Below are positions 1 through 11,704 of a stretch of 11,790 bases of DNA, piece after piece. The position numbers and the translations under genes were made by a program. The notes below the pieces were generated by a model that worked only from the letters and a program-made list of their open reading frames with translations, did not search any database and was not told the DNA's origin. Every line of letters begins with the position of its first letter. The first letter of the stretch is position 1. The DNA comes from Methanosarcinales archaeon (GTDB lineage: Archaea > Halobacteriota > Syntropharchaeia > Alkanophagales > Methanospirareceae): contig JAUXGS010000013.1 of the NCBI GenBank assembly GCA_030621945.1, forward strand, positions 1 to 11,790, in the 5' to 3' direction.

Positions 1-196
1 GCGGGTTCAGCAGCACGATCACCAATTCGTATTCTTCGCCTTCTAGCAATCCAATGGGAATCACGTGGGACGGCACAAACGTAATATCAGCGGATAATAA
101 TACGAACAAGCATTATAAGCACAGCGGGTTCAGCAGCACGATCACCAATTCGTATTCTTCGCCTTCTAGCAATCCAATGGGAATCACGTGGGACGG
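1..196 (+). repeat. Direct repeat, 73 bp identical copies, 123-bp period
   Basis: Bases 1-73 and 124-196 are identical. The offset is 123 bp, exactly 41 codons, so the reading frame is kept. The first copy touches the window edge and the array may continue upstream. Perfect DNA identity in a coding repeat points to recent duplication or gene conversion. Confidence 0.95.
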
Positions 197-980
197 GAGG
201 TATGGGGTCACTTCAAAATCTTCTGCTGATTCGGGAATTGGCGCAGATATCCTGGCTTATTTGTCGGTTATTCTTACCCAATCGGACGTTGGTTCCGGTG
301 CGGAATCGTTAGGGGCGAGAACGTTAGGTGTACTCGATATCGGAACAGGCGCAGATGAGGCGCAACTCATAGCAACGTTAACGAAGTCGGACCAAGGAAC
401 AGGAACAGATGAACTCACAGCCATCATAAATATTCTGCTTGGTAGCGATGTTGGTTCAGGGACAGATGCACTTTCGGAGTTCATAGCTACTATTACACAA
501 TCCGATGTCGGTTCAGGCGCGGGATCATTAAGGTCAAGAGCATTGGGCGCAGCCGATCAAGGAGCAGGAGCAGACGCTCTGACAGAACTCATAGCGATTA
601 TCTCAAAATCAGACACAGGAGCAGGAACAGACGCTCTCTCCGAACTCATAGCGATCATTGAAAAATCGGATACAGGAGCCGGGGCAGATGCCTTATCGTT
701 ACTTTTAGGTATCATTACCCCTTCGGACACCGGCTCAGGGGTAGAATCATTAGGCTCGAGAGCGTTAGGTGCACGAGAAACAGGTACTGGCGCAGACGCC
801 CTCTCAGAACTCATCGCAACGCTAACCAGTTCTGATAGCGGAGCGGGAACGGAATTAGCCGCGACAATTGTAACTTTCATACTCCTTAAACTTCTTCACG
901 AAAGACAAGTAAATATAATGGCTTCGCAAGACGATAGACCGGTAAACATCACACTATCACAGGAGGCGATTACAAGTTAA
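1..980 (+). CDS. Repeat-rich tail-fibre-like protein, 3' portion (5' end outside window)
   Basis: The reading frame is already open at base 3, before the first in-window ATG (54), so the true start lies upstream. Part one holds 41-residue units containing GFSSTITNSYSSPSSNP followed by MGITWDG, which resemble beta-propeller blades. Part two (about 222-875) holds roughly twelve 16-19 residue units with consensus SDxGxGxDALxELIAxI. The tail has a short hydrophobic stretch (FILLKLL) and ends in AITS. No catalytic motif is visible. Repeats of this kind are common in phage and archaeal virus fibres and surface proteins, and the neighbours are virion genes, so a host-facing fibre or spike role is inferred. 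A cellular repeat protein cannot be excluded. The last codons carry the AGGAGG ribosome-binding site of the next gene. Confidence 0.6.
   Translation, partial: GFSSTITNSYSSPSSNPMGITWDGTNVISADNNTNKHYKHSGFSSTITNSYSSPSSNPMGITWDGRYGVTSKSSADSGIGADILAYLSVILTQSDVGSGAESLGARTLGVLDIGTGADEAQLIATLTKSDQGTGTDELTAIINILLGSDVGSGTDALSEFIATITQSDVGSGAGSLRSRALGAADQGAGADALTELIAIISKSDTGAGTDALSELIAIIEKSDTGAGADALSLLLGIITPSDTGSGVESLGSRALGARETGTGADALSELIATLTSSDSGAGTELAATIVTFILLKLLHERQVNIMASQDDRPVNITLSQEAITS
222..875 (+). repeat. Degenerate SDxGxG protein repeats (about 12 units)
   Basis: The translated region contains successive short units such as QSDVGSGAESLGARTLGVL and KSDTGAGTDALSELIAIIE. Two flavours occur: an ESLGSRALGA type that is followed by a unit lacking the leading SD, and a DALSELIAII type. 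The longer pattern looks like a higher-order repeat. The motif resembles acidic Gly/Asp turns but lacks the GGxGxD pattern of RTX calcium-binding repeats. Confidence 0.8.
961..966 (+). promoter_or_regulatory. Shine-Dalgarno AGGAGG for the 981 gene
   Basis: AGGAGG lies inside the end of the upstream gene, 14 nt before the ATG at 981, which directly follows the upstream stop codon. The arrangement suggests translational coupling. The 1323 gene shows the same 14-nt spacing. Confidence 0.6.
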
Positions 981-1729: not shown

Positions 1730-1761
1730 GTCTTAAACAATTTGAACAACATCTGTTCATT
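1730..1761 (+). promoter_or_regulatory. Candidate promoter, CTTAAACA box plus CTGTTCAT element
   Basis: CTTAAACA (1732-1739) begins exactly 30 nt before the ATG at 1762. That is the same spacing as the strong TTTATATA boxes elsewhere. CTGTTCAT follows at 1753-1760. Both elements recur before the 2977 gene. The match to a TATA consensus is weak. Confidence 0.35.
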
Positions 1762-2493
1762 ATGGCGGTTGTATATTCTTCTTCTGCGCTGATTAAAAAG
1801 GCGGTAAAGTGGATTCCGGCGGGGCTCGTGGACCCCACTGATTTTGATAATTATATATATCAAGCAGAGAGTCTAATTGACGAAAGTATGGGCAAGGTGG
1901 CGCGGGGTGCGGGTGCGGATTTTGTTTTCGATGCAAAAAGCCATGGAATAATTCAAAGGGCTGCTACGGCGATCGGGGCGTTCTACGCTATCACATATAA
2001 TGTATCGGCGTTTCCTCTTCTCGAGGAATCAGAGATGGGTGCCAACTTGCTATTTTATGATCAGCTTAGAGCTTTGACGTTGCTTTCGGATACGCGCGTT
2101 TCCGATTTCCTTCAAGATTTTTCTTCAACTGTTACCACTCTGACGTATTCCTCCGCTGCATTGGTGAAGAAAGCAGTGAAATACATGCATGCTGATCTGC
2201 TTACTGCGGACATAGAAACTTTTATCTTTCAAGCAGAGGGTCTAGTTGATGCCGTAATGCGAAAGACCGCCAGGGGTGATGCAGCTGATTTTACATTCTC
2301 TGCAACTAAGCACGGGCTTCTCCAGCGTGCTGCGACTTCAATAGCGGCTTTTTATTGCGTCACCTACGATCCTGCTTCCCACCCTCTTTTGGAAAGCGGG
2401 GAGATGAGTTGTAACCTTTTATATTATTCTCAGCTTCGTGATTTAAATCTATTGTCGGACATCAGGGTCGTGGATCATCTTTCGTCTCTATAA
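1762..2493 (+). CDS. Tandem-duplicated connector-like protein (243 aa)
   Basis: The protein consists of two homologous halves, residues about 3-118 and 127-242, offset by 123-124 residues. Paired segments include SSALIKKAVKW/SAALVKKAVKY, FDAKSHGIIQRAATAI/FSATKHGLLQRAATSI and LLSDTRV/LLSDIRV. Each half has the helix plan of the preceding 129-aa connector-like protein, including a 'YIYQAESLIDE' helix that parallels 'FIEDAQAYIEA'. A two-domain connector or neck subunit is inferred; a fused dimer could change ring stoichiometry. No Shine-Dalgarno site is evident. A weak TATA-like box 30 nt upstream suggests a leaderless transcript. The 3' end overlaps a small minus-strand ORF by 32 bases. Confidence 0.65.
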   Translation: MAVVYSSSALIKKAVKWIPAGLVDPTDFDNYIYQAESLIDESMGKVARGAGADFVFDAKSHGIIQRAATAIGAFYAITYNVSAFPLLEESEMGANLLFYDQLRALTLLSDTRVSDFLQDFSSTVTTLTYSSAALVKKAVKYMHADLLTADIETFIFQAEGLVDAVMRKTARGDAADFTFSATKHGLLQRAATSIAAFYCVTYDPASHPLLESGEMSCNLLYYSQLRDLNLLSDIRVVDHLSSL

Positions 2494-2944: not shown

Positions 2945-2976
2945 GTCTTAAACTCTTTTAAGTCTCTTTTCTGTTC
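2945..2976 (+). promoter_or_regulatory. Candidate promoter, CTTAAACT box plus CTGTTCAT
   Basis: CTTAAACT (2947-2954) begins 30 nt before the ATG at 2977. CTGTTCAT (2971-2978) overlaps that start codon. GTCTTAAAC and CTGTTCAT both recur upstream of the 1762 gene. The similarity to a TATA box is weak. Confidence 0.35.
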
Positions 2977-3954
2977 ATGCCTCGCAGAAAGAAAAGATCC
3001 AAAATAAAACTTCCCTCTCCTACGGACAAAACCCCCCCGTTCCCTAAACTTCTTCGTGGAGCATCCGGCCCGCCACCTATTTTCCCGATTAACGTACCCC
3101 GCCGCCGATCGAAATTCGATAAATACCCGCGCATAATCCGGATTGCCCGATCAATCAAATCGCTACTCAAAGTCGAGCCTGATAAGCCTGTTCGTATGCC
3201 TTCTTTTCCAACTCTCGCGTTCCCACGACTTTATACTCGTTACTCAATCATGAAAACGTATACTGCCGTAAGCGACGCAAACGGCAAAATCACGGTAACA
3301 TTCCCGCGTGTATTCCGCAAGATCCCGGGTGTTGTCATCTCACCAAAGGATGCCGGGACTTGGTTTGAACATGTGCTTTCTACGAATGAGTTCGGATTTA
3401 CGATACAAATATTGAAGACGGCGCATGCGCATCAGCACGCGAATTCAGGCGGCGGAGGCGGACACGACCATAGTACAGGTAATTCTAATTATGCAGGGAA
3501 TCATTGGCATTATACAGATGACAAAGGTGGGCACGATCATACGATTGCGACAGATGGCGGTGTGAAAACATCAGCAGCTACGGGAACATATATATCAGGT
3601 GGACTGATTGCGGACGGGGGTGCGCAGTTAACATATTTACACGAATACTCAGCGGGATGCGCCGATCCCCCGGCTTGTTATATCAGTTGGGTTATTACCG
3701 GTATCAATGACGGGCTGGATCTAACTACAAAAACTCATACTCACACCACTGATATCGACCATTCACATTCCGAATCCACCGAACCCGACCATTATCATGA
3801 TACCGATTGGGATGGCGATCATGAACATACAATACCCAACTCAAATACCGAACCGAACCATGACCATCCAGTCCCCGATTCAAACGAAAAAGAAGCTTCT
3901 TTACTCGCTAACACCTCTGTCACATTTACGTACTTCGCACAGGAGGAAAGTTAA
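2977..3954 (+). CDS. Histidine-rich tail-spike/fibre-tip-like protein (325 aa)
   Basis: Residues 1-90 are basic and proline-rich (MPRRKKRSKIK...). Residues about 93-148 resemble an H-type-lectin or jelly-roll edge (KITVTFPRVFRKIPGVVIS). Nine HxH clusters follow at residues 150-154 (HxHxH), 163/165, 176/178, 186/188, 254/256, 262/264, 272/274, 282/284 and 295/297, and the protein ends in VTFTYFAQEES. In T4 gp37, the long tail fibre tip, HxH motifs from three chains coordinate iron along a needle, so a trimeric metal-bound receptor-binding tip is inferred. WVITG (238-242) sits between two HxH blocks. In-frame ATGs at residues 74 and 92 are alternative starts if the basic N-terminus is not real. 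It shares a promoter-like arrangement with the 1762 gene. Confidence 0.65.
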   Translation: MPRRKKRSKIKLPSPTDKTPPFPKLLRGASGPPPIFPINVPRRRSKFDKYPRIIRIARSIKSLLKVEPDKPVRMPSFPTLAFPRLYTRYSIMKTYTAVSDANGKITVTFPRVFRKIPGVVISPKDAGTWFEHVLSTNEFGFTIQILKTAHAHQHANSGGGGGHDHSTGNSNYAGNHWHYTDDKGGHDHTIATDGGVKTSAATGTYISGGLIADGGAQLTYLHEYSAGCADPPACYISWVITGINDGLDLTTKTHTHTTDIDHSHSESTEPDHYHDTDWDGDHEHTIPNSNTEPNHDHPVPDSNEKEASLLANTSVTFTYFAQEES

Positions 3955-3965
3955 AGTTAAAAAGG

Positions 3966-3973
3966 TTTATATA
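3966..3973 (+). promoter_or_regulatory. Archaeal promoter (TTTATATA) with purine-rich BRE
   Basis: AAAAAGG directly precedes TTTATATA, as expected for a TFB-recognition element plus TATA box. The box starts 30 nt before the ATG at 3996. In archaea the start site usually lies about 25-30 nt from the box, so the mRNA is probably leaderless. Confidence 0.8.
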
Positions 3974-3995: not shown

Positions 3996-4247
3996 ATGAT
4001 AAAAGTAAAAGGGACCCCAACACGACAATCCAACGGGAAGTCTGTATGTGTAACTTTGGAAACCCCTGAAGGAAAAGAGTATGAACGCTTTGCGAAGCTC
4101 GAACATGTTCTTGATGAGGGCATATTCAAGAGTCTGTTACAGACATGGGATAGACAGATAAAAGAGGAAGAAGCGCGAGTGGAATTAACAAAAGAAGATG
4201 TTGAGAAAGTACTGAAGAAACGCGCAAAGATGGAAATAAAGGATTGA
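3996..4247 (+). CDS. Small charged protein (83 aa), unknown
   Basis: The start is set by the strong leaderless promoter. The first half is beta-like (KSVCVTLETPEGKEYERFAKL). The second half is a highly charged helix (RQIKEEEARVELTKEDVEKVLKK) likely to form a coiled coil. There are no membrane segments or catalytic motifs. It heads a run of three closely spaced genes with the 4252 and 4490 ORFs (gaps of 4 and 19 bases). A small virion or assembly factor is possible, but no family is recognised. Confidence 0.65.
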   Translation: MIKVKGTPTRQSNGKSVCVTLETPEGKEYERFAKLEHVLDEGIFKSLLQTWDRQIKEEEARVELTKEDVEKVLKKRAKMEIKD

Positions 4248-5708: not shown

Positions 5709-6740
5709 ATGTCTAAAATAAAAATAGAAGATTTGAAAAAGCAATCAGGGGCAATCCCTTCCGCCTATGATGAACGAGATTTTCCATTCAGCGTTCTCCC
5801 AACTGTAAAGAGGGAAGAGATACCTGAAGAGTTCTCGCTCCGAAGCGAGCAAACATCAGTTAAACATCAGGGAACGGTAGGTGCGTGCACGGCATTTTCC
5901 GCTTGCGCGATTAATGAGATACTGCAAAAAGTTAAAAATCTCAGCGAAGGACATCTATATTGCCGAAGAGAAAATAAACCGGGCCCGGGGATGCATCCTC
6001 GTGATGCTTGCAAAATACTACAAAAAAAGGGAGTGTGCTCTGAGAGTTGCTGGCCTTACATTTCAGATGTTAAAAGACTCTGTGGGTACTCGCCTTGCAA
6101 TACCGTGGGCATTCAATCAGAAAGATATAGGATAACCTCATATCATCGCTGCTTCAATTCTTTAAAGGATACCTTATTCTCTACAAAGTTACCCATCCTA
6201 ATTGTCGTTCCTGTATACGAGAACTGGGAAAGCATAGGTGCAGACGGAAAGGTGCCAATGCCGGGGGGCAATATGATTAGTTATCATTCTCTCGTGTTGA
6301 CCGGGTGGTCTAAAAACTACCTCGAAGTAAAGAATAGCTGGGGTGCGGATTTCGGTGACAATGGATACCTCTACATTCCAGAACATTACCCAGTTACGGA
6401 AGCGTGGCTAATGAAGAAAGAAGAGCAACCAAATGGCGAAGAAAAGGTGAACGTTGAAGATTGGCAAATAGGCAAGAAGAACCTCTTCGGCGCTAATGTT
6501 ACGTTTACGATTATCTCGACTGTAAAATGCCAAATGGGGTTATACGTCAACGGTAAAAAACCAAGATTTTCAAAGCGCATACGGGAAGGCGCAAACAAGA
6601 TCCACTTCAACATAGATTATGAACTTAATTCTGAAACGGGTCTGAGACTGGAATTTACGGAAGGCATGTTTTCCAACAAAAAGGTAATCGGAAGTTGGGA
6701 AGGAAATCTGAAAGTGGGTGCGGAGATAACCACGAAATAA
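5709..6740 (+). CDS. Papain-family (C1-like) cysteine protease (343 aa)
   Basis: The C1 peptidase signature is complete. Gln54 of KHQGTVGAC forms the oxyanion hole, Cys60 is the nucleophile, His193 sits in SYHSLVLTGW and Asn209 in VKNSWG. The pre-domain (1-40, with IPSAYDERDFPF) is typical of bacterial and archaeal papain-like enzymes. Several extra cysteines (101, 110, 114, 125, 130) lie in the insert between Cys60 and His193. A beta-rich C-terminal domain of about 100 residues (from about 235) may bind a substrate or the virion. There is no signal peptide, so it acts in the cytoplasm, is released by lysis or is virion-borne. Prohead maturation or degradation of a proteinaceous host envelope are plausible roles. 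No clear promoter or ribosome-binding site precedes it. Confidence 0.85.
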   Translation: MSKIKIEDLKKQSGAIPSAYDERDFPFSVLPTVKREEIPEEFSLRSEQTSVKHQGTVGACTAFSACAINEILQKVKNLSEGHLYCRRENKPGPGMHPRDACKILQKKGVCSESCWPYISDVKRLCGYSPCNTVGIQSERYRITSYHRCFNSLKDTLFSTKLPILIVVPVYENWESIGADGKVPMPGGNMISYHSLVLTGWSKNYLEVKNSWGADFGDNGYLYIPEHYPVTEAWLMKKEEQPNGEEKVNVEDWQIGKKNLFGANVTFTIISTVKCQMGLYVNGKKPRFSKRIREGANKIHFNIDYELNSETGLRLEFTEGMFSNKKVIGSWEGNLKVGAEITTK

Positions 6741-6748
6741 GATAGTCC

Positions 6749-6756
6749 TTTATATA
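6749..6756 (+). promoter_or_regulatory. Archaeal promoter (TTTATATA) of the TBP-like gene
   Basis: TTTATATA begins 30 nt before the ATG at 6779, predicting a leaderless mRNA. Unlike the other strong boxes here, the bases just upstream are AGTCC rather than a purine-rich BRE. Confidence 0.75.
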
Positions 6757-6778: not shown

Positions 6779-7411
6779 ATGCCCTCGCAACCCCCGGCAA
6801 GTGAGGTGAAGAAACCAAAAGTACAAATAACCAATATCATCGCCAAGTCCCAACTCGTGCCGCCCTTCGATCTTTCTTCACTCATAGTCAAACACCCTTT
6901 TGACCACAAAGCCGTTCTGACCAGGATATTCATTCCTCACGATCATATCAAATTCTCTATCTTCCGTACCGGAACAGTTATGTCTCGTGCCACCCGATCC
7001 TTCTATGAACTCGATGCTTCTTTTAACTGGTTAGCATTTGATTTTCTTCCCGATTTCGATCTCAAACTTTCTGATAAATATGACGTTCTCAATATCGTTG
7101 CCTTTTCTGATTTTCGTTTAAAAAACCACCTCAATCTTTTTGAACTCGCACCCCTCCTCCTCAATTCTTCTTACGACCCTTCACCCCTCTTTTGTGAGAA
7201 AGACGACCACGAGCATCTTGTCGATTGTATCACGTATTACTTCCACGAAGGCAAACCTCGTTACACCGCTTTGATATTCCCCACAGGTAAAATAACGCTT
7301 ACCGGGTTCAAGTCCGTTACCGAACTCGAACTTCACGCTCATAAATTATACTCGACGCTTTCGCAAATCAGTCTCGAACACCCGGAGGTGCTAACTGAAA
7401 AGCTTAAGTAG
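6779..7411 (+). CDS. TATA-binding-protein-like transcription factor (210 aa)
   Basis: Two TBP-like repeats are visible. Repeat 1 (about 15-88) has VQITNIIAKSQL and later FSIFRTGTVMSRATRS. Repeat 2 (about 101-195) has YDVLNIVAFSDF and ALIFPTGKITLTGFKS, very close to the cellular TBP 'LIFxSGKxVxTGAKS' strand pair. The TATA-contacting Asn of each repeat appears retained (Asn19, Asn105), as does one intercalating Phe per repeat (Phe62, Phe167). Thr175 of the V/L-T-G motif is kept in repeat 2, but repeat 1 has S-R-A instead. The other intercalating Phe appears lost in both repeats (His43 in repeat 1). Length matches archaeal TBP (about 180-200 aa). It would bind promoter DNA and recruit TFB and RNA polymerase, or act as a competitor of host TBP. 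The concave surface divergence suggests altered DNA preference. Confidence 0.75.
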   Translation: MPSQPPASEVKKPKVQITNIIAKSQLVPPFDLSSLIVKHPFDHKAVLTRIFIPHDHIKFSIFRTGTVMSRATRSFYELDASFNWLAFDFLPDFDLKLSDKYDVLNIVAFSDFRLKNHLNLFELAPLLLNSSYDPSPLFCEKDDHEHLVDCITYYFHEGKPRYTALIFPTGKITLTGFKSVTELELHAHKLYSTLSQISLEHPEVLTEKLK

Positions 7412-7714
7412 GTGGGACTTTTTTATAGGATTATTATGAAAAAAGAGGTTGCAGAAGAGACGGAAGAGAATTTTATAACCGCGGAAGAGCGAGCGATGCT
7501 GAGGCACGAACTCGCGGAGAGAATAAAAGACCTCGTATTCTTCCGTGCCGAACATTCAGCCAGCGAAGCTCTCGAGCATATTGGTAATTTCCTCGGTCTT
7601 CATTCCGATTTTGCCGTCGAAGCCATATTCAAAATCCAATTCTCCGCAGGCGAGCTCCAGCAAATATTAGCGAGATCAAGAAGAAAATGAAAGGTTCTAA
7701 CGGAAAAGCTTAAG
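7386..7714 (+). repeat. Direct repeat marking a tandem gene duplication
   Basis: The 23 bases at 7386-7408 (end of the TBP-like gene, encoding VLTEKLK) recur at 7692-7714 with 21 of 23 identical. The offset is 306 bp. The second copy no longer belongs to a TBP gene, so it is a remnant carried along when the adjacent small gene was duplicated. Confidence 0.8.
7436..7690 (+). CDS. Small helical protein, copy 1 of tandem pair (84 aa)
   Basis: I prefer the ATG at 7436 to the GTG at 7412 because the paralogue downstream also starts MKK at the matching position. The protein is helical: EERAMLRHELAERIKDLVFF, then SASEALEHIGNFL, ending in LQQILARSRRK. About half of the residues match the next protein, including HELAER, KDLV, ASEAL and the identical QQILARSRRK end. 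No known family is recognised. It lies 24 bases after the TBP-like gene and is probably co-transcribed with it, so a partner or regulator role can be considered without proof. Confidence 0.6.
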   Translation: MKKEVAEETEENFITAEERAMLRHELAERIKDLVFFRAEHSASEALEHIGNFLGLHSDFAVEAIFKIQFSAGELQQILARSRRK

Positions 7715-7715
7715 C

Positions 7716-7985
7716 ATGAAAAAAAACAACCTTGCGCAATCTATTGCAGAAGTGACAAAAGTGAAATATATAACCGAAGAGGAACGTGGAACTTTAAAGC
7801 ACGAGCTCGCAGAGAGAATGAAAGACCTTGTTTACATCAATGCGGAACGCCGAGCCAGCGAAGCCCTCGCCAATATGGGCGACTTTCTTAATCTTTCTTC
7901 AGACTATACCTTTGAAGTCACGTATAAACTCAAATTCTGCGCGGGCGATTTCCAGCAAATATTAGCGAGGTCACGAAGAAAATGA
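7716..7985 (+). CDS. Small helical protein, copy 2 of tandem pair (89 aa)
   Basis: This is a paralogue of the preceding gene. It shares the EER.LKHELAER.KDLV core, ASEAL, the spacing of 'SDYTFEVTYKLKF' with copy 1's 'SDFAVEAIFKIQF', and the QQILARSRRK C-terminus. The last 30 bases are nearly identical in DNA. The start region differs from copy 1: the ATG lies one base after the TBP-gene remnant. The stop overlaps the start of the 43-aa ORF (ATGA). Function unknown. Confidence 0.6.
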   Translation: MKKNNLAQSIAEVTKVKYITEEERGTLKHELAERMKDLVYINAERRASEALANMGDFLNLSSDYTFEVTYKLKFCAGDFQQILARSRRK

Positions 7986-8119: not shown

Positions 8120-8578
8120 ATGCCAGAAGAAACTATGCGACATTCCTCCGCATTCGAAGCCTATTACGCTCTCGGTGACAACAGGAGTCTCCCCAAACTT
8201 CGCCAACAACTCATTGATACGTTACCACCGGAAGAGGTCGTTTCGGAACGCACTTTAGAGAATTGGAGTGTGTCTTTTAATTGGCAACAGCGTGTGATTG
8301 ATAAGAATAAAAATATTTCCGCTCTTGTCGATCAGAAAAGTACCAACGATTCAGTCAAGAAGAGGATAAAATGGCTTGCCCAAGCAGAGGATCGGATTTC
8401 TACGGCGTTCAATGAAGATGGCAGCCCAAAATTCACCATCGAGGACAACAAGTCCCTAAACGAAATCGTGAAGCTCGCTTTGACGTTGATGGGAGAACCC
8501 GAGCGTAAAGAAATTGAGCATGTGCATCAGCATGAAATCAAGATCATCGAGATTAAGGAAAGCAAGAGGGAGGATTGA
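8120..8578 (+). CDS. Terminase small subunit-like DNA-binding protein (152 aa)
   Basis: Residues about 10-58 form a helix-turn-helix pattern typical of phage TerS and related proteins: SAFEAYYALGDNRSLPKL, SERTLENWSVSFNWQQRV. The spaced 'W..xFxWqxRv' ending is characteristic. The middle is helical (SVKKRIKWLAQAEDRI) and the C-terminus is His/Glu/Lys-rich. TerS recognises packaging-site DNA and stimulates TerL. The gene lies two ORFs upstream of TerL with one intervening zinc-ribbon gene, which supports the call. A TATA-like AGTATAAAAAG (8098-8108) precedes it but is too close to the ATG to be a clean leaderless promoter. It could alternatively be a regulatory HTH protein. Confidence 0.65.
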   Translation: MPEETMRHSSAFEAYYALGDNRSLPKLRQQLIDTLPPEEVVSERTLENWSVSFNWQQRVIDKNKNISALVDQKSTNDSVKKRIKWLAQAEDRISTAFNEDGSPKFTIEDNKSLNEIVKLALTLMGEPERKEIEHVHQHEIKIIEIKESKRED

Positions 8579-9136: not shown

Positions 9137-11704
9137 ATGAAGAAAATACCGGAACTTTATGAAATCAAAGACGAAAAATTGATTTTGAATTTGCATCCAG
9201 GGCAGCTAAAAGCTTGGCAGAGCAAAAAGAGGTTCGTATGCATACTAAGCGGAACGCAGGCCGGGAAATGTGGGCGTTTTGATGTTCTCCTTTCAAATGG
9301 CGAACGCCGCTTCGTTAAAAATCTATGCGCTGGTGATGAAGTTCTTTCTATCGGGCGCAATCTCAGAATTCATAAAGCGAGAATTAGCACAGTCTTTAAA
9401 ACGGGCAGGCAGCAATTATTCAAAGTTACTACTACAAGCGGCAGAGAGATAACCGTTACCGCCAACCATCCATTTTTAGGTGAAGATGGCTGGGTGCCTT
9501 GTAGAGATTTTAAAGAGGGGGATTTTATTGCCGTCCCTCGCATTTTACCCGATATCGGGACCGAACACCAAGATCCTAAAAAGATGAAACTATTAGGATA
9601 CCTAATCGGCGATGGTGGTTTAACAGGCAGTGTGTTATTTTCAAATGTTGATGAAGAGATATTAAGCGATTTAAAATCCTGCTTACCCCCTTCTTGTGAG
9701 CTTGTCCATGCTGATCGTTGCACTTATAGCATAAGGCGAAAATGGAAAGGTAGCTTTAATCCCGTGCTCAAGATGGTGCGCAGATGTAAAATCGATACAC
9801 TCTCAAAACATAAAAGAATCCCTTTATTTGTGTTTCGCTTAGTGACAGCTGATATAGCACCACTACTCAACGGCCTATTCGCAACTGACGGCTGGGTCGA
9901 TACTAAAGGCATAGGGTTGGCTTCTGCAAGCGAGGGGTTAATTCGAGATGTAGCGCATCTTCTTCTCAGGTTTGGAATCAACGCCAGGGTTCGCTTCAAA
10001 CCGGCAAAATGCAACGGTAAGGTTTTCAGTTCATGGTCTATGGCGATAGCGGACCTGAGGGAATTGAAGATATTCGCTCAAAGAATTGGGATTACTTCAA
10101 AACAAAACAAATTAGAAGCTCTTATTCTAAAAAAGGAAGGAAAACGGGTTAACACAAAAGACTTAATCCCTAATTTCCCCATTTCGGAGTGTTACATTAC
10201 ACTATTTAAATCGGATCTTCGCCATAGCAGGTGGAATCCCCCTAACGACATAGAAGGTTATAACCTTCTACGAGCTTGCCGTCACAAAAACATTTCTCGC
10301 CCGTTTGCGCAGAAGATAGCAGATTATTTCAATATTGGCGCCACTCAGGCGTATTCGGACATCTATTGGGACAACGTAAAATCTATTGTTGATTTGGGCC
10401 CTGATGAAACGTACGATATCGAAGTTGAGGGGGAACATAATTTCATAGCGGATGATTTTTTTGCCCATAACACTTCAATGGTTCCTTTTTGGCTTTATCG
10501 GGAAATCCAACGATGCGGGGGCGGGGATTACCTTGCCGTGACGAGCACCTATGATTTATACAAACTTAAATTTTTGCCCAGTTTGCGTAGTATATTCGAG
10601 CAAGTCCTGGGTATTGGAAAGTTTTGGTCAAGTGAAAGGGTCATAGAAATAAAAAATCCCGAGACGGGAAAGTTCGAAGCAGAAGTCGCCTCGGATCCTA
10701 TGTATGCCCGGATTATTCTTCGGTCTGCAGCCGCAGGCGCGAAGAAAGGTCGAGAGGGTGCTGGAGGCTTAGAAAGCTCCACGGCCAAGGGCGCAGTTGT
10801 AGATGAGTGCGGCTTGGATAGCTTCCCGCTTCAGGCTTGGGAAGGCATTCTCAGACGGCTTTCCTTACATGAAGGACGTGTGCTTATCACGACAACTCTG
10901 TACAATATTAATTGGATGAAGCGCGAAATATACAATCTATGGGAAAATGGGGATATGGATTATGACGTCATTCAATTTCCCAGCATAGCCAATCCCGCTT
11001 TTCCGCGAAGCGAATACGAACGCGCGAAAAAAACAATGCCCGGCTGGAAATTTGATATGATCTATAGAGGTTTGTATTCTCACCCCGCTGGCCAGATATA
11101 CAGCGACTTTGACGAAAGCGTACACGTCATCAAACCCTTTGCAATCCCTCCCGAATGGCCTCGCTATGTCGGCATCGATTTCGGTTCGATACACACCGCT
11201 GTTCTTTTTTTAGCCGAAGATAAAGCCAAAGAAACTTTTTACGTTTACAGAATCACACTCGAAGGAAATCTCACATCCAAACAACACGCAACCGCCGCGC
11301 TAAAACGCGCGACTAACGAGCGGGTTGTCGTATGGTGCGGCGGCGCAAAGTCTGAGCAGCAGAATCGATTAGATTGGCAAGAAGCGGGTGTCAATGTTGT
11401 CAAACCACCATTCTACGATGTTGAACCTGCCATTGACCGAATTGCAGAACTTCTAAAAGGCAACCGCCTTTTCTTCTTCGATAACTGTGAGCGTCATTCT
11501 CTCGCCACCACGCCCACGGAGTTCCCTACGATTTTCAGTGAATTTGGTCAGTACAGTAGAAAGTTAGATGCGAACGGCGAGCCGACACCCGAAATCAAAG
11601 ATAAGGAGAAGTATCACCGCCTTGACGCTCTCAGATACGGAATCCTTACCGCGCTACGACCCAATTTACGCAAACGCATGGTTCTTATTCCGCGTATGCG
11701 GTGA
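9137..11704 (+). CDS. terL: Terminase large subunit with in-frame intein (855 aa)
   Basis: After removal of the intein (residues 45-445) the product is 454 aa, normal for TerL. The ATPase domain has Walker A G39-T-Q-A-G-K44, continuing with Thr446 after splicing, Walker B GAVVDECG (Asp556, Glu557) and a coupling motif LITTTLYN. The RNase H-like nuclease has Asp681 in GIDFGS and Asp830 in HRLDALRY; the third acidic residue is probably in the LFFFDNCE region. The enzyme drives DNA into proheads with ATP and cuts concatemers. The start is four bases after the zinc-ribbon stop, with no clear ribosome-binding site. The host of the intein must splice it to be active, because the insertion separates the P-loop Lys from its Thr. 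Confidence 0.95.
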   Translation: MKKIPELYEIKDEKLILNLHPGQLKAWQSKKRFVCILSGTQAGKCGRFDVLLSNGERRFVKNLCAGDEVLSIGRNLRIHKARISTVFKTGRQQLFKVTTTSGREITVTANHPFLGEDGWVPCRDFKEGDFIAVPRILPDIGTEHQDPKKMKLLGYLIGDGGLTGSVLFSNVDEEILSDLKSCLPPSCELVHADRCTYSIRRKWKGSFNPVLKMVRRCKIDTLSKHKRIPLFVFRLVTADIAPLLNGLFATDGWVDTKGIGLASASEGLIRDVAHLLLRFGINARVRFKPAKCNGKVFSSWSMAIADLRELKIFAQRIGITSKQNKLEALILKKEGKRVNTKDLIPNFPISECYITLFKSDLRHSRWNPPNDIEGYNLLRACRHKNISRPFAQKIADYFNIGATQAYSDIYWDNVKSIVDLGPDETYDIEVEGEHNFIADDFFAHNTSMVPFWLYREIQRCGGGDYLAVTSTYDLYKLKFLPSLRSIFEQVLGIGKFWSSERVIEIKNPETGKFEAEVASDPMYARIILRSAAAGAKKGREGAGGLESSTAKGAVVDECGLDSFPLQAWEGILRRLSLHEGRVLITTTLYNINWMKREIYNLWENGDMDYDVIQFPSIANPAFPRSEYERAKKTMPGWKFDMIYRGLYSHPAGQIYSDFDESVHVIKPFAIPPEWPRYVGIDFGSIHTAVLFLAEDKAKETFYVYRITLEGNLTSKQHATAALKRATNERVVVWCGGAKSEQQNRLDWQEAGVNVVKPPFYDVEPAIDRIAELLKGNRLFFFDNCERHSLATTPTEFPTIFSEFGQYSRKLDANGEPTPEIKDKEKYHRLDALRYGILTALRPNLRKRMVLIPRMR
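9269..10471 (+). mobile_element. LAGLIDADG intein in the TerL Walker A motif (401 aa)
   Basis: The intein begins with Cys45 (CGRFDVLLSNG, block A) and ends ADDFFAHN445, with the penultimate His444 and Asn445 required for branch resolution, and Thr446 as the +1 nucleophile. Block B is TANH (Thr108-His111). A dodecapeptide (DOD) homing endonuclease is present: LLGYLIGDGG (Asp159) and LLNGLFATDGW (Asp251), both acidic catalytic residues retained. Block F is ETYDIEVEGEHNFIADD. A helical stretch, roughly residues 340-415, between the endonuclease and block F may add DNA contacts. All splicing residues are intact, so it should splice and home. The site, GTQAGK/T, is a classic conserved P-loop target. 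Confidence 0.92.
10251..10270 (+). repeat. Perfect 20-bp palindrome inside the intein
   Basis: TAGAAGGTTA followed immediately by its reverse complement TAACCTTCTA gives a 10+10 bp perfect palindrome. It encodes part of EGYNLLR between the endonuclease and block F. A chance match of this length is uncommon in a window of this size. Confidence 0.8.

What the first reader, a model, noticed from the sequence alone, without database searches (positions are those of the whole stretch)
6779..7411. Virus-encoded TATA-binding-protein-like factor with an asymmetric DNA surface
Seen: two repeats each with N-I-[IV]-A and an IF.(T)G strand pair; repeat 2 keeps TGxKS and repeat 1 does not (SRATRS). Known: cellular TBP bends TATA DNA using two Phe per repeat and central Asn residues. 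Inference: a diverged TBP carried in a virion gene region could redirect host RNA polymerase to viral promoters or jam host TBP. Only one Phe per repeat seems kept, so bending may be weaker. I do not know of a characterised head-tailed archaeal virus that relies on its own TBP.
Basis: partly seen in the sequence, partly recalled or inferred. Interest (0 to 1): 0.85.

Follow-up and report, generated by a model that had tools for sequence, protein, structure and literature searches.

The report
Virus-made TBP for virion-gene promoters
Head-tailed viruses of methane-metabolising archaea carry their own altered copy of the cell's promoter-marking protein (TBP), and many of their virion genes are preceded, where a TATA box would sit, by a different short DNA box that this copy probably reads.

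The parts
6779..7411 (+). viral TBP-family protein, 210 aa
6815..7078 (+). TBP repeat 1 (aa 13-100): Asn19 and Phe62 kept; Leu to Ser60, Thr to Arg70, FPG motif lost
   Evidence: alignment of 64 viral and 48 canonical rows, model
7079..7378 (+). TBP repeat 2 (aa 101-200): Asn105, Leu165, Phe167, Thr175-Gly176 kept; first Phe lost; acidic pair reduced to D133/S135
7187..7219 (+). 11-residue insertion in the repeat 2 stirrup (aa 137-147), a modelled hairpin, next to V-x-C
   Evidence: gap in 48 of 48 canonical rows, mostly filled in the viral rows (a few columns gapped in some); strands 135-139 and 144-148
7379..7393 (+). C-terminal HPEVL tail (aa 201-205): H 60, P 63, E 60, V 63, L 55 of 64 viral rows; canonical rows mostly end before it
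6749..6756 (+). TTTATATA box 30 nt before the TBP start codon: host-type, apparently leaderless promoter of the viral TBP gene
   Evidence: TTTATA also at -27 to -30 before TBP in L037, G012 and G074
1732..1738 (+). CTTAAAC box, TTAAAC starts 29 nt before ATG 1762: proposed viral TBP target
   Evidence: kept at -28 before the G074 ortholog
1762..2493 (+). gene behind a CTTAAAC box; internally duplicated; 64% identical to a G074 protein that has a weak head-tail adaptor match (E=0.004)
2947..2953 (+). CTTAAAC box, TTAAAC starts 29 nt before ATG 2977: proposed viral TBP target
   Evidence: kept at -30 before the G074 ortholog
2977..3954 (+). gene behind a CTTAAAC box; His-rich protein, probably fibre or tail (inference)
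   Evidence: no Pfam match
3966..3973 (+). TTTATATA box 30 nt before the small gene at 3996
7436..7690 (+). small gene between TBP and terminase, paralog of the next one by eye
   Evidence: no Pfam or PHROG match
7716..7985 (+). second copy of the small gene
   Evidence: only a sub-threshold Pfam match
8120..8578 (+). terminase small subunit (phrog_6299, E=1.2e-18)
   Evidence: G074 counterpart 53% identical and also phrog_6299
9137..11704 (+). terminase large subunit interrupted by an intein

Best explanation
The gene encodes a viral core-promoter factor. The host's own TBP and TFB transcribe the viral TBP gene and other small genes from ordinary TTTATA-type boxes (boxes shown; use by host TBP inferred). 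The viral TBP then takes the place of host TBP at a different box, CTTAAAC, at the TATA position of virion genes (portal, head protease, probable head-tail and fibre genes) and brings in host TFB and RNA polymerase, so that virion genes are switched on as a class once viral TBP has accumulated (inferred). The near-canonical repeat 2 would read the upstream half of the box and the altered, more polar repeat 1 (Ser60, Arg70) the downstream AAAC half with its C:G pair (inferred). No TFB was found in the virus records searched, so a host TFB is the likely partner; the changed stirrup may suit one host TFB or a viral partner (inferred).
For: Fold and homology. Family: 61 metagenome relatives, ANMV-1; 64 of 64 viral rows form one clade apart from 48 canonical rows, local support 0.88. 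Viral context: TBP, a small gene, large terminase in order in G074, L037, G006:C77 and ANMV-1, TBP then the small gene on the 3.1-kb contig G000:C7; the small gene is a PHROG small terminase in the window and G074 only, the rest by position. Boxes: among all 6-mers at -33 to -26 of ORF starts in 7 TBP-carrying contigs (192 ORFs), TTTATA ranks 1 (16 vs 1.36 expected) and TTAAAC 3 (10 vs 0.86, p=1.5e-8; about 6e-5 after correction for 4096 words). G074 alone has TTAAAC on top (5 vs 0.33, p=1.7e-5); all five lie in the 26.7 kb that I had not seen before that call. Host control: 2 vs 1.78 in 400 kb, 429 ORFs. First starts only, [CGT]TTAAAC in the -26 to -33 bin: 9 of 192 ORFs in TBP-carrying contigs (other bins mean 0.50), 0 of 162 in the TBP-less virus set (mean 0.62), 1 of 429 in host (mean 0.79). 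Prediction met: 6 of 6 portal genes whose start could be read in bins of the host family have CTTAAAC at -28 to -30; with the G074 and ANMV-1 portals 8 of 8 have TTAAAC at -28 to -31, in about 5 lineages. Window and G074 orthologs both keep the box. Genes behind TTAAAC (13) are longer than genes behind TTTATA (17): medians 349 and 85 aa, p=6e-5. No TFB in G074, G075 or ANMV-1; three two-repeat TFB-like genes in the host bin.
Against: No binding or expression data. Portal promoters in bins G005 and G003 have the box although no family TBP was found in those bins. If their four contigs (5 of 59 ORFs) are counted as TBP-less, that set becomes 5 of 221 instead of 0 of 162; the contigs are fragments and one portal copy in G005 carries stops, but the coupling is not strict. 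In G005:C76 a large terminase gene (phrog_38) has its own CTTAAAC box (-32) and no TBP was found on that contig. The capsid-like gene of G074 and two similar G006 genes have TATATA at -34 with a GGAGGTG Shine-Dalgarno-like sequence, not CTTAAAC. A DNA ligase-domain gene and a glycosyltransferase gene are also behind TTAAAC, so the class is not purely structural. Terminase, usually late, sits behind TBP in most of the loci. I first saw the motif by eye in ANMV-1 and the window, so the pooled p-value is partly post hoc; G074 and the portal genes are the cleaner tests, and the four G005/G003 portal upstreams are near-identical.
Confidence: 0.6

Rival explanations
1. The viral TBP reads ordinary TATA boxes and simply raises initiation capacity or escapes host regulation; CTTAAAC is read by some other factor, host or viral.
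For: Both boxes are enriched at the same position in the same contigs; repeat 2 is near canonical; bins G005 and G003 have CTTAAAC without a detected family TBP.
Against: The host stretches examined do not use CTTAAAC at that position (0 of 429 first starts), so a host factor dedicated to it is unlikely; the TBP-less virus set does not use it (0 of 162, with G005/G003 kept apart); repeat 1's DNA face changed in a conserved way; the box sits where a TBP binds.
Confidence: 0.22
2. The protein is a dominant-negative TBP that titrates TFB or occupies host TATA boxes to shut off host transcription.
For: Loss of two of four intercalating Phe and of one of two acidic TFB-contact residues could give a non-productive factor; an archaeal virus protein that blocks RNA polymerase is known (PMC5123050, search listing only).
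Against: Does not explain a second promoter class in the same genomes; Asn pair, second Phe pair, Asp133 and repeat 2 face are strongly kept.
Confidence: 0.1
3. The TBP saddle is an architectural DNA-bending protein for genome packaging, acting with the terminase whose genes follow it.
For: TBP directly precedes the (putative) small terminase gene in 5 contigs other than the window, touching, overlapping or within 6 bases, across two types of large terminase (phrog_2 in window and G074, phrog_38 in G006:C77 and ANMV-1).
Against: No packaging role of a TBP fold is known to me; synteny equally suits a transcription switch next to terminase, as with phage late activators (recalled); does not explain CTTAAAC.
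Confidence: 0.06

Closest known systems
TATA-box binding protein of ANMV-1 virus (KP703175, AJP62014.1; Paul et al. 2015, PMC4372165, passages read)
   Same: Homologous over 97% of the query at 39.8% identity; same place before a small gene and the large terminase; shares family features, though not all; TTAAACG box before its portal and head protease genes.
   Different: In the passages read it is used only as evidence for an archaeal host; no role or target proposed there.
Canonical archaeal TBP (PF00352; 1mp9, 2z8u, 1ais)
   Same: Two-repeat saddle, central Asn pair, second Phe pair, repeat 2 DNA face.
   Different: FPG motif lost in both repeats, Ser and Arg in repeat 1 face, YEPE to YDPS, 11-residue stirrup insertion, HPEVL tail; under all 10 NCBIfam TBP cut-offs listed.
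Beta- and gammaherpesvirus TBP mimic (KSHV ORF24 and relatives), late promoters TATTWAA (PMC12529657, passages read)
   Same: Virus-encoded TBP fold, non-TATA box at late genes, host polymerase reused, more polar DNA face, acidic TFIIB contacts lost (here one of two).
   Different: ORF24 has all four Phe, is much larger and acts in a six-protein complex; eukaryotic hosts. Sequence relation not tested here.
TBP-like and TFIIB-like pairs of large eukaryotic DNA viruses (PMC7221094, passages read)
   Same: Virus-encoded TBP-like proteins proposed to form a separate transcription system.
   Different: Almost all of those viruses, poxviruses apart, have a TFIIB-like partner by that paper; none found in the three records searched here.

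Membership tests
TBP family (PF00352) | Profile match over the curated cut-off | tested here: met
   48.7 bits vs 22.9, residues 102-196, repeat 2 only
TBP family (PF00352) | Two-repeat saddle fold | tested here: met
TBP family (PF00352) | Central Asn in each repeat | tested here: met
   N19 61 of 64, N105 64 of 64
Canonical TBP (equivalog) | NCBIfam TBP cut-offs | tested here: not met
   best 37.5 bits vs 270; 10 of 10 models listed under cut-off
Canonical TBP (equivalog) | Two intercalating Phe per repeat | tested here: not met
   second Phe kept (61 F and 3 Y; 64 F of 64); FPG Phe in 4 and 3 of 64 rows, not in the window
Canonical TBP (equivalog) | Acidic TFB-contact pair in the C-terminal stirrup (YEPE) | tested here: not met
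   48 of 48 E and E in canonical rows; viral D 63 of 64 and S 49 of 64
Canonical TBP (equivalog) | Binds TATA boxes and recruits TFB and RNA polymerase | not testable with these tools
   needs binding and in vitro transcription assays
Herpesvirus-type late TBP mimic | A box distinct from TATA at the promoters of a class of viral genes | tested here: met
   TTAAAC at -28 to -31 before portal and other probable virion genes
Herpesvirus-type late TBP mimic | Those genes are expressed late and the viral TBP binds the box | not testable with these tools
   no expression or binding data
Herpesvirus-type late TBP mimic | Common descent with ORF24/UL87 | not tested
   no comparison made; one herpesvirus protein (Ranid herpesvirus 2 ORF75, E 8e-4 in BFVD) is not proof
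ANMV-1-type viral TBP family | Homology, family signatures and place before terminase | tested here: met

The most novel reading that the evidence does not exclude
Archaeal head-tailed viruses evolved a private core promoter: a diverged viral TBP with an asymmetric DNA face that recognises CTTAAAC instead of TATA and switches host RNA polymerase to virion genes, an independent counterpart of the herpesvirus late-gene TBP system in the prokaryotic virosphere.
Probability: 0.57. Interest if true: 0.87.

Novelty: new variant of a known kind. Interest (0 to 1): 0.74.

Why it matters
A review of archaeal viral transcription factors (PMC5569661, passages read) says promoter motifs indicate that archaeal viruses are likely to use host TBP and TFB on TATA and BRE elements. 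A viral TBP paired with its own box would be, as far as my searches of open-licence papers show, the first archaeal case of a virus replacing promoter recognition itself; it would give a natural orthogonal TBP-promoter pair for studying how TBP specificity evolves, and a sequence rule for finding virion genes in such viruses.

Tried and rejected
Single-sequence searches of viral contigs with the window TBP, the ANMV-1 TBP and the G006:C77 large terminase found no relative; alignment queries found L036 and L037 and then only those or the same G074 record again. A large-terminase search added the TBP-less relative L112/G076. The distant phylum hit G107 (E=7e-21) is a canonical TBP with both FPG motifs, so not a member; of 392 phylum genomes 3 hold true members (4 loci). 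A TTAAACG at window 5672 was set aside: it lies in the loop of a terminator-like hairpin (by eye) 37 nt before ATG 5709. CTTAAG variants (before 7436, and one in ANMV-1) were not counted. Searches with A5 and A6 for further orthologs of window 1762 and 2977 gave one N-terminal A5 match with a stop inside (G006:C184), whose upstream I did not examine by itself, and no other N-terminus; in G065:C102 and G071:C128 a gene at or just before an A5-like stretch has TTTATATA at -29. Paper searches: no paper; open-licence PubMed Central only; no listed title or abstract start was a study of archaeal viral TBP function or of a CTTAAAC promoter in archaea. Borgs of methane-oxidising archaea are reported to lack a TBP (PMC9879509, passages). 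No TATA or TBP in the main text of the ANME-1 virome paper (PMC9894754, term search, one section read).

Full report

Where it comes from. The window is the whole 11,790-base contig C36 of a 1.19-Mb, 56% complete archaeal bin. The bin carries mcrA (5 of 8 genomes of the genus do), so the host is probably a methane-metabolising archaeon; contig C77 of the same-genus bin G006 is letter for letter the record DAOUYX010000096.1, titled Methanosarcinales archaeon CSMAG_938. The bin has three TBP genes: a canonical one on C80, the window's, and a second family member on C7. The window is viral: small terminase (phrog_6299, E=1.2e-18) and large terminase with an intein. The order TBP, small gene, large terminase recurs in G074 (L036), L037, G006:C77 (L038) and ANMV-1, with TBP then the small gene on the short contig G000:C7. 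The small gene is a PHROG small terminase in G074; in L037, G006:C77, G000:C7 and ANMV-1 it has no significant PHROG match and is a small terminase by position only (the L037 and ANMV-1 ones are 41% identical). The large terminases are of two types, phrog_2 (window, G074) and phrog_38 (G006:C77, ANMV-1) (L037's was not scanned). Only the window has two small genes in between.

The family. 61 of 147 candidate proteins passed in a 5.8-billion-protein search; two of them are the G074 and G006:C77 proteins. In the host family, profile A1 hit 41 of 51 genomes at E<=1e-6, but only 4 loci in 3 genomes are true members (E of 1.3e-88 or better); the next hit is 1.9e-16 and the rest score like canonical TBPs. 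In 392 genomes of the phylum the true members are the same 4 loci (with G107 rejected). ANMV-1, a methane-seep virus published in 2015, encodes a homolog (39.8% identity, 97% coverage), the only record of 50,697 in the phage collection with a match at E<=0.01. That paper mentions the TBP as evidence for an archaeal host (passages); a 2017 paper repeats it (passages). So the bare fact of a viral TBP in such viruses is known.

How it differs from host TBP (64 viral rows, 48 canonical rows; many rows are close relatives). Kept: N19 (61), N105 (64), second Phe of each repeat (61 F and 3 Y; 64 F), repeat 2 Leu165 (64), Thr175 (62), Gly176 (63). Changed: the FPG Phe, 48 of 48 canonical in both repeats, is Phe in only 4 and 3 viral rows; repeat 1 Leu to Ser60 (61) and Thr to Arg70 (55); YEPE (48 of 48) to YDPS (D 63, S 49); an insertion of about 11 residues in the C-terminal stirrup; a C-terminal HPEVL tail. 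That these positions contact DNA or TFB is recalled from TBP structures, and partly stated in PMC7221094 and PMC12529657 (passages). On a FastTree tree all 64 viral rows form one clade with a long stem (2.65 substitutions per site, local support 0.88).

Promoters. Reading upstream of the viral TBP genes showed TTTATA boxes 27-30 nt before the ATG in the window, L037, G012 and G074, and AAATATATAG in ANMV-1, so the TBP gene itself looks host-driven and leaderless; in G006:C77 and G000:C7 TBP follows another ORF closely. In ANMV-1 and the window I then noticed TTAAAC at the same place before other genes and listed its sites in those and in L036, L037, L038, L040 and L003. An unbiased count of all 6-mers at -33 to -26 of ORF starts gave TTTATA, TTATAT and TTAAAC as the top three in 7 TBP-carrying contigs (an eighth contig, G000:C32, not shown to carry a TBP, was and dropped). 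TTAAAC: 10 vs 0.86 expected. Up to four in-frame starts per ORF were allowed. G074 alone had TTAAAC at the top (5 vs 0.33); the 19.6 kb of it that I had scanned had none at that distance, and the five are all in the other 26.7 kb. In 400 kb of host DNA TTAAAC is not enriched (2 vs 1.78), nor in the TBP-less relative G076 (1 vs 0.75) nor in Methanobacterium phage psiM2 (1 vs 0.28) (TBP absence in G076, in psiM2 inferred from its annotation).

What the boxes precede. TTAAAC: portal in G074 and in ANMV-1 (PF06381, E=3e-30 and 3e-22; the ANMV-1 record calls it MutT-like), head maturation protease in ANMV-1, the window's 1762 and 2977 genes and their G074 orthologs (64% and 45% identity), a glycosyltransferase and a DNA ligase-domain protein in G074. 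TTTATA: the TBP gene and mostly small proteins. In 10 contigs, 13 TTAAAC genes have median length 349 aa and 17 TTTATA genes 85 aa (left out of that count were G000:C32, G005:C47, C76 and C80, G003:C96, G006:C184, G065:C102 and G071:C128).

Prediction test. Portal homologs were sought in 51 host-family genomes: 11 matches in 5 genomes. I gave 8 of the 11 loci to the reading script; 6 of them contain the start, and all 6 have CTTAAAC at -28 to -30. Two (G006, G012) are from bins that also hold a family TBP on other contigs; four (G005 three, G003 one) are close relatives of each other from bins without a detected family TBP. None of the ten contigs fetched around such genes holds a family TBP in the part held; in them CTTAAA is the top 6-mer (12 vs 1.02) and TTAAAC 8 vs 0.91, figures inflated by those relatives. 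With first starts only, [CGT]TTAAAC in the -26 to -33 bin counts 9 of 192 ORFs (TBP-carrying contigs), 3 of 54 (portal contigs in TBP-holding bins), 5 of 59 (contigs of G005/G003), 0 of 162 (TBP-less virus set: G076, psiM2, G065:C102, G071:C128) and 1 of 429 (host). Pooling the G005/G003 contigs with the TBP-less set would give 5 of 221.

Mechanism. The TATA register of CTTAAAC, its restriction to these viruses, its place before virion genes and the conserved change of repeat 1's DNA face point to the viral TBP as its reader. Shown: homology, fold, gene order, residue changes, two boxes, controls. Inferred: that viral TBP binds CTTAAAC, that repeat 1 reads the C:G end, that host TFB and polymerase follow, and that the genes are late. 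No TFB was found in G074, G075 or ANMV-1 (fragments possible), and the host bin has three two-repeat TFB-like genes.

Against. G005 and G003; a large terminase gene with its own box and no TBP on its contig in G005:C76; the G074 capsid-like gene with TATATA and a Shine-Dalgarno-like sequence; two non-virion genes behind the box; the partly post hoc discovery. On rechecking, the pooled 5 of 221 made me lower the confidence slightly, from 0.62 to 0.60.

Noticed in passing
window 9137-11704: The large terminase carries an intein with a LAGLIDADG domain, inserted in the ATPase P-loop region (SGTQAGK before it; uninterrupted GGTQSGKT in G074).
   Followed up: partly
window 5709-6740; G000:C32 1281-2198: Papain-like C1 protease (PF00112, E=4e-17) in a virus contig, with a 73% DNA-identical stretch on another contig of the same bin.
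   Followed up: no
L069 1913-3193 (ANMV-1): Annotated as MutT-like phage hydrolase in the record but matches phage portal protein (PF06381 E=3e-22; phrog_146 E=2e-30).
   Followed up: yes
window 7436-7690 and 7716-7985: Tandem paralogous small genes wedged between TBP and small terminase, absent from that place in the other loci read.
   Followed up: no
window 1762-2493: Protein made of two similar halves of about 115 aa; half-length matches with a stop inside in G006, G065 and G071.
   Followed up: partly
window 3-980: Run of about 25-30-aa repeats (SDxGxGxDALSELIA-like, by eye), open at the contig start, perhaps a fibre.
   Followed up: no
window 2977-3954: Very His-rich stretches (HDH, HWH, HTH) suggesting metal binding in a virion surface protein.
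   Followed up: no
G005:C47, C76, C80 (L140-L142): Several partial portal copies in one bin, one with stop codons inside, suggesting decayed proviruses; on C76 a 567-aa large terminase (phrog_38) with an extra N-terminal part resembling the small gene.
   Followed up: partly
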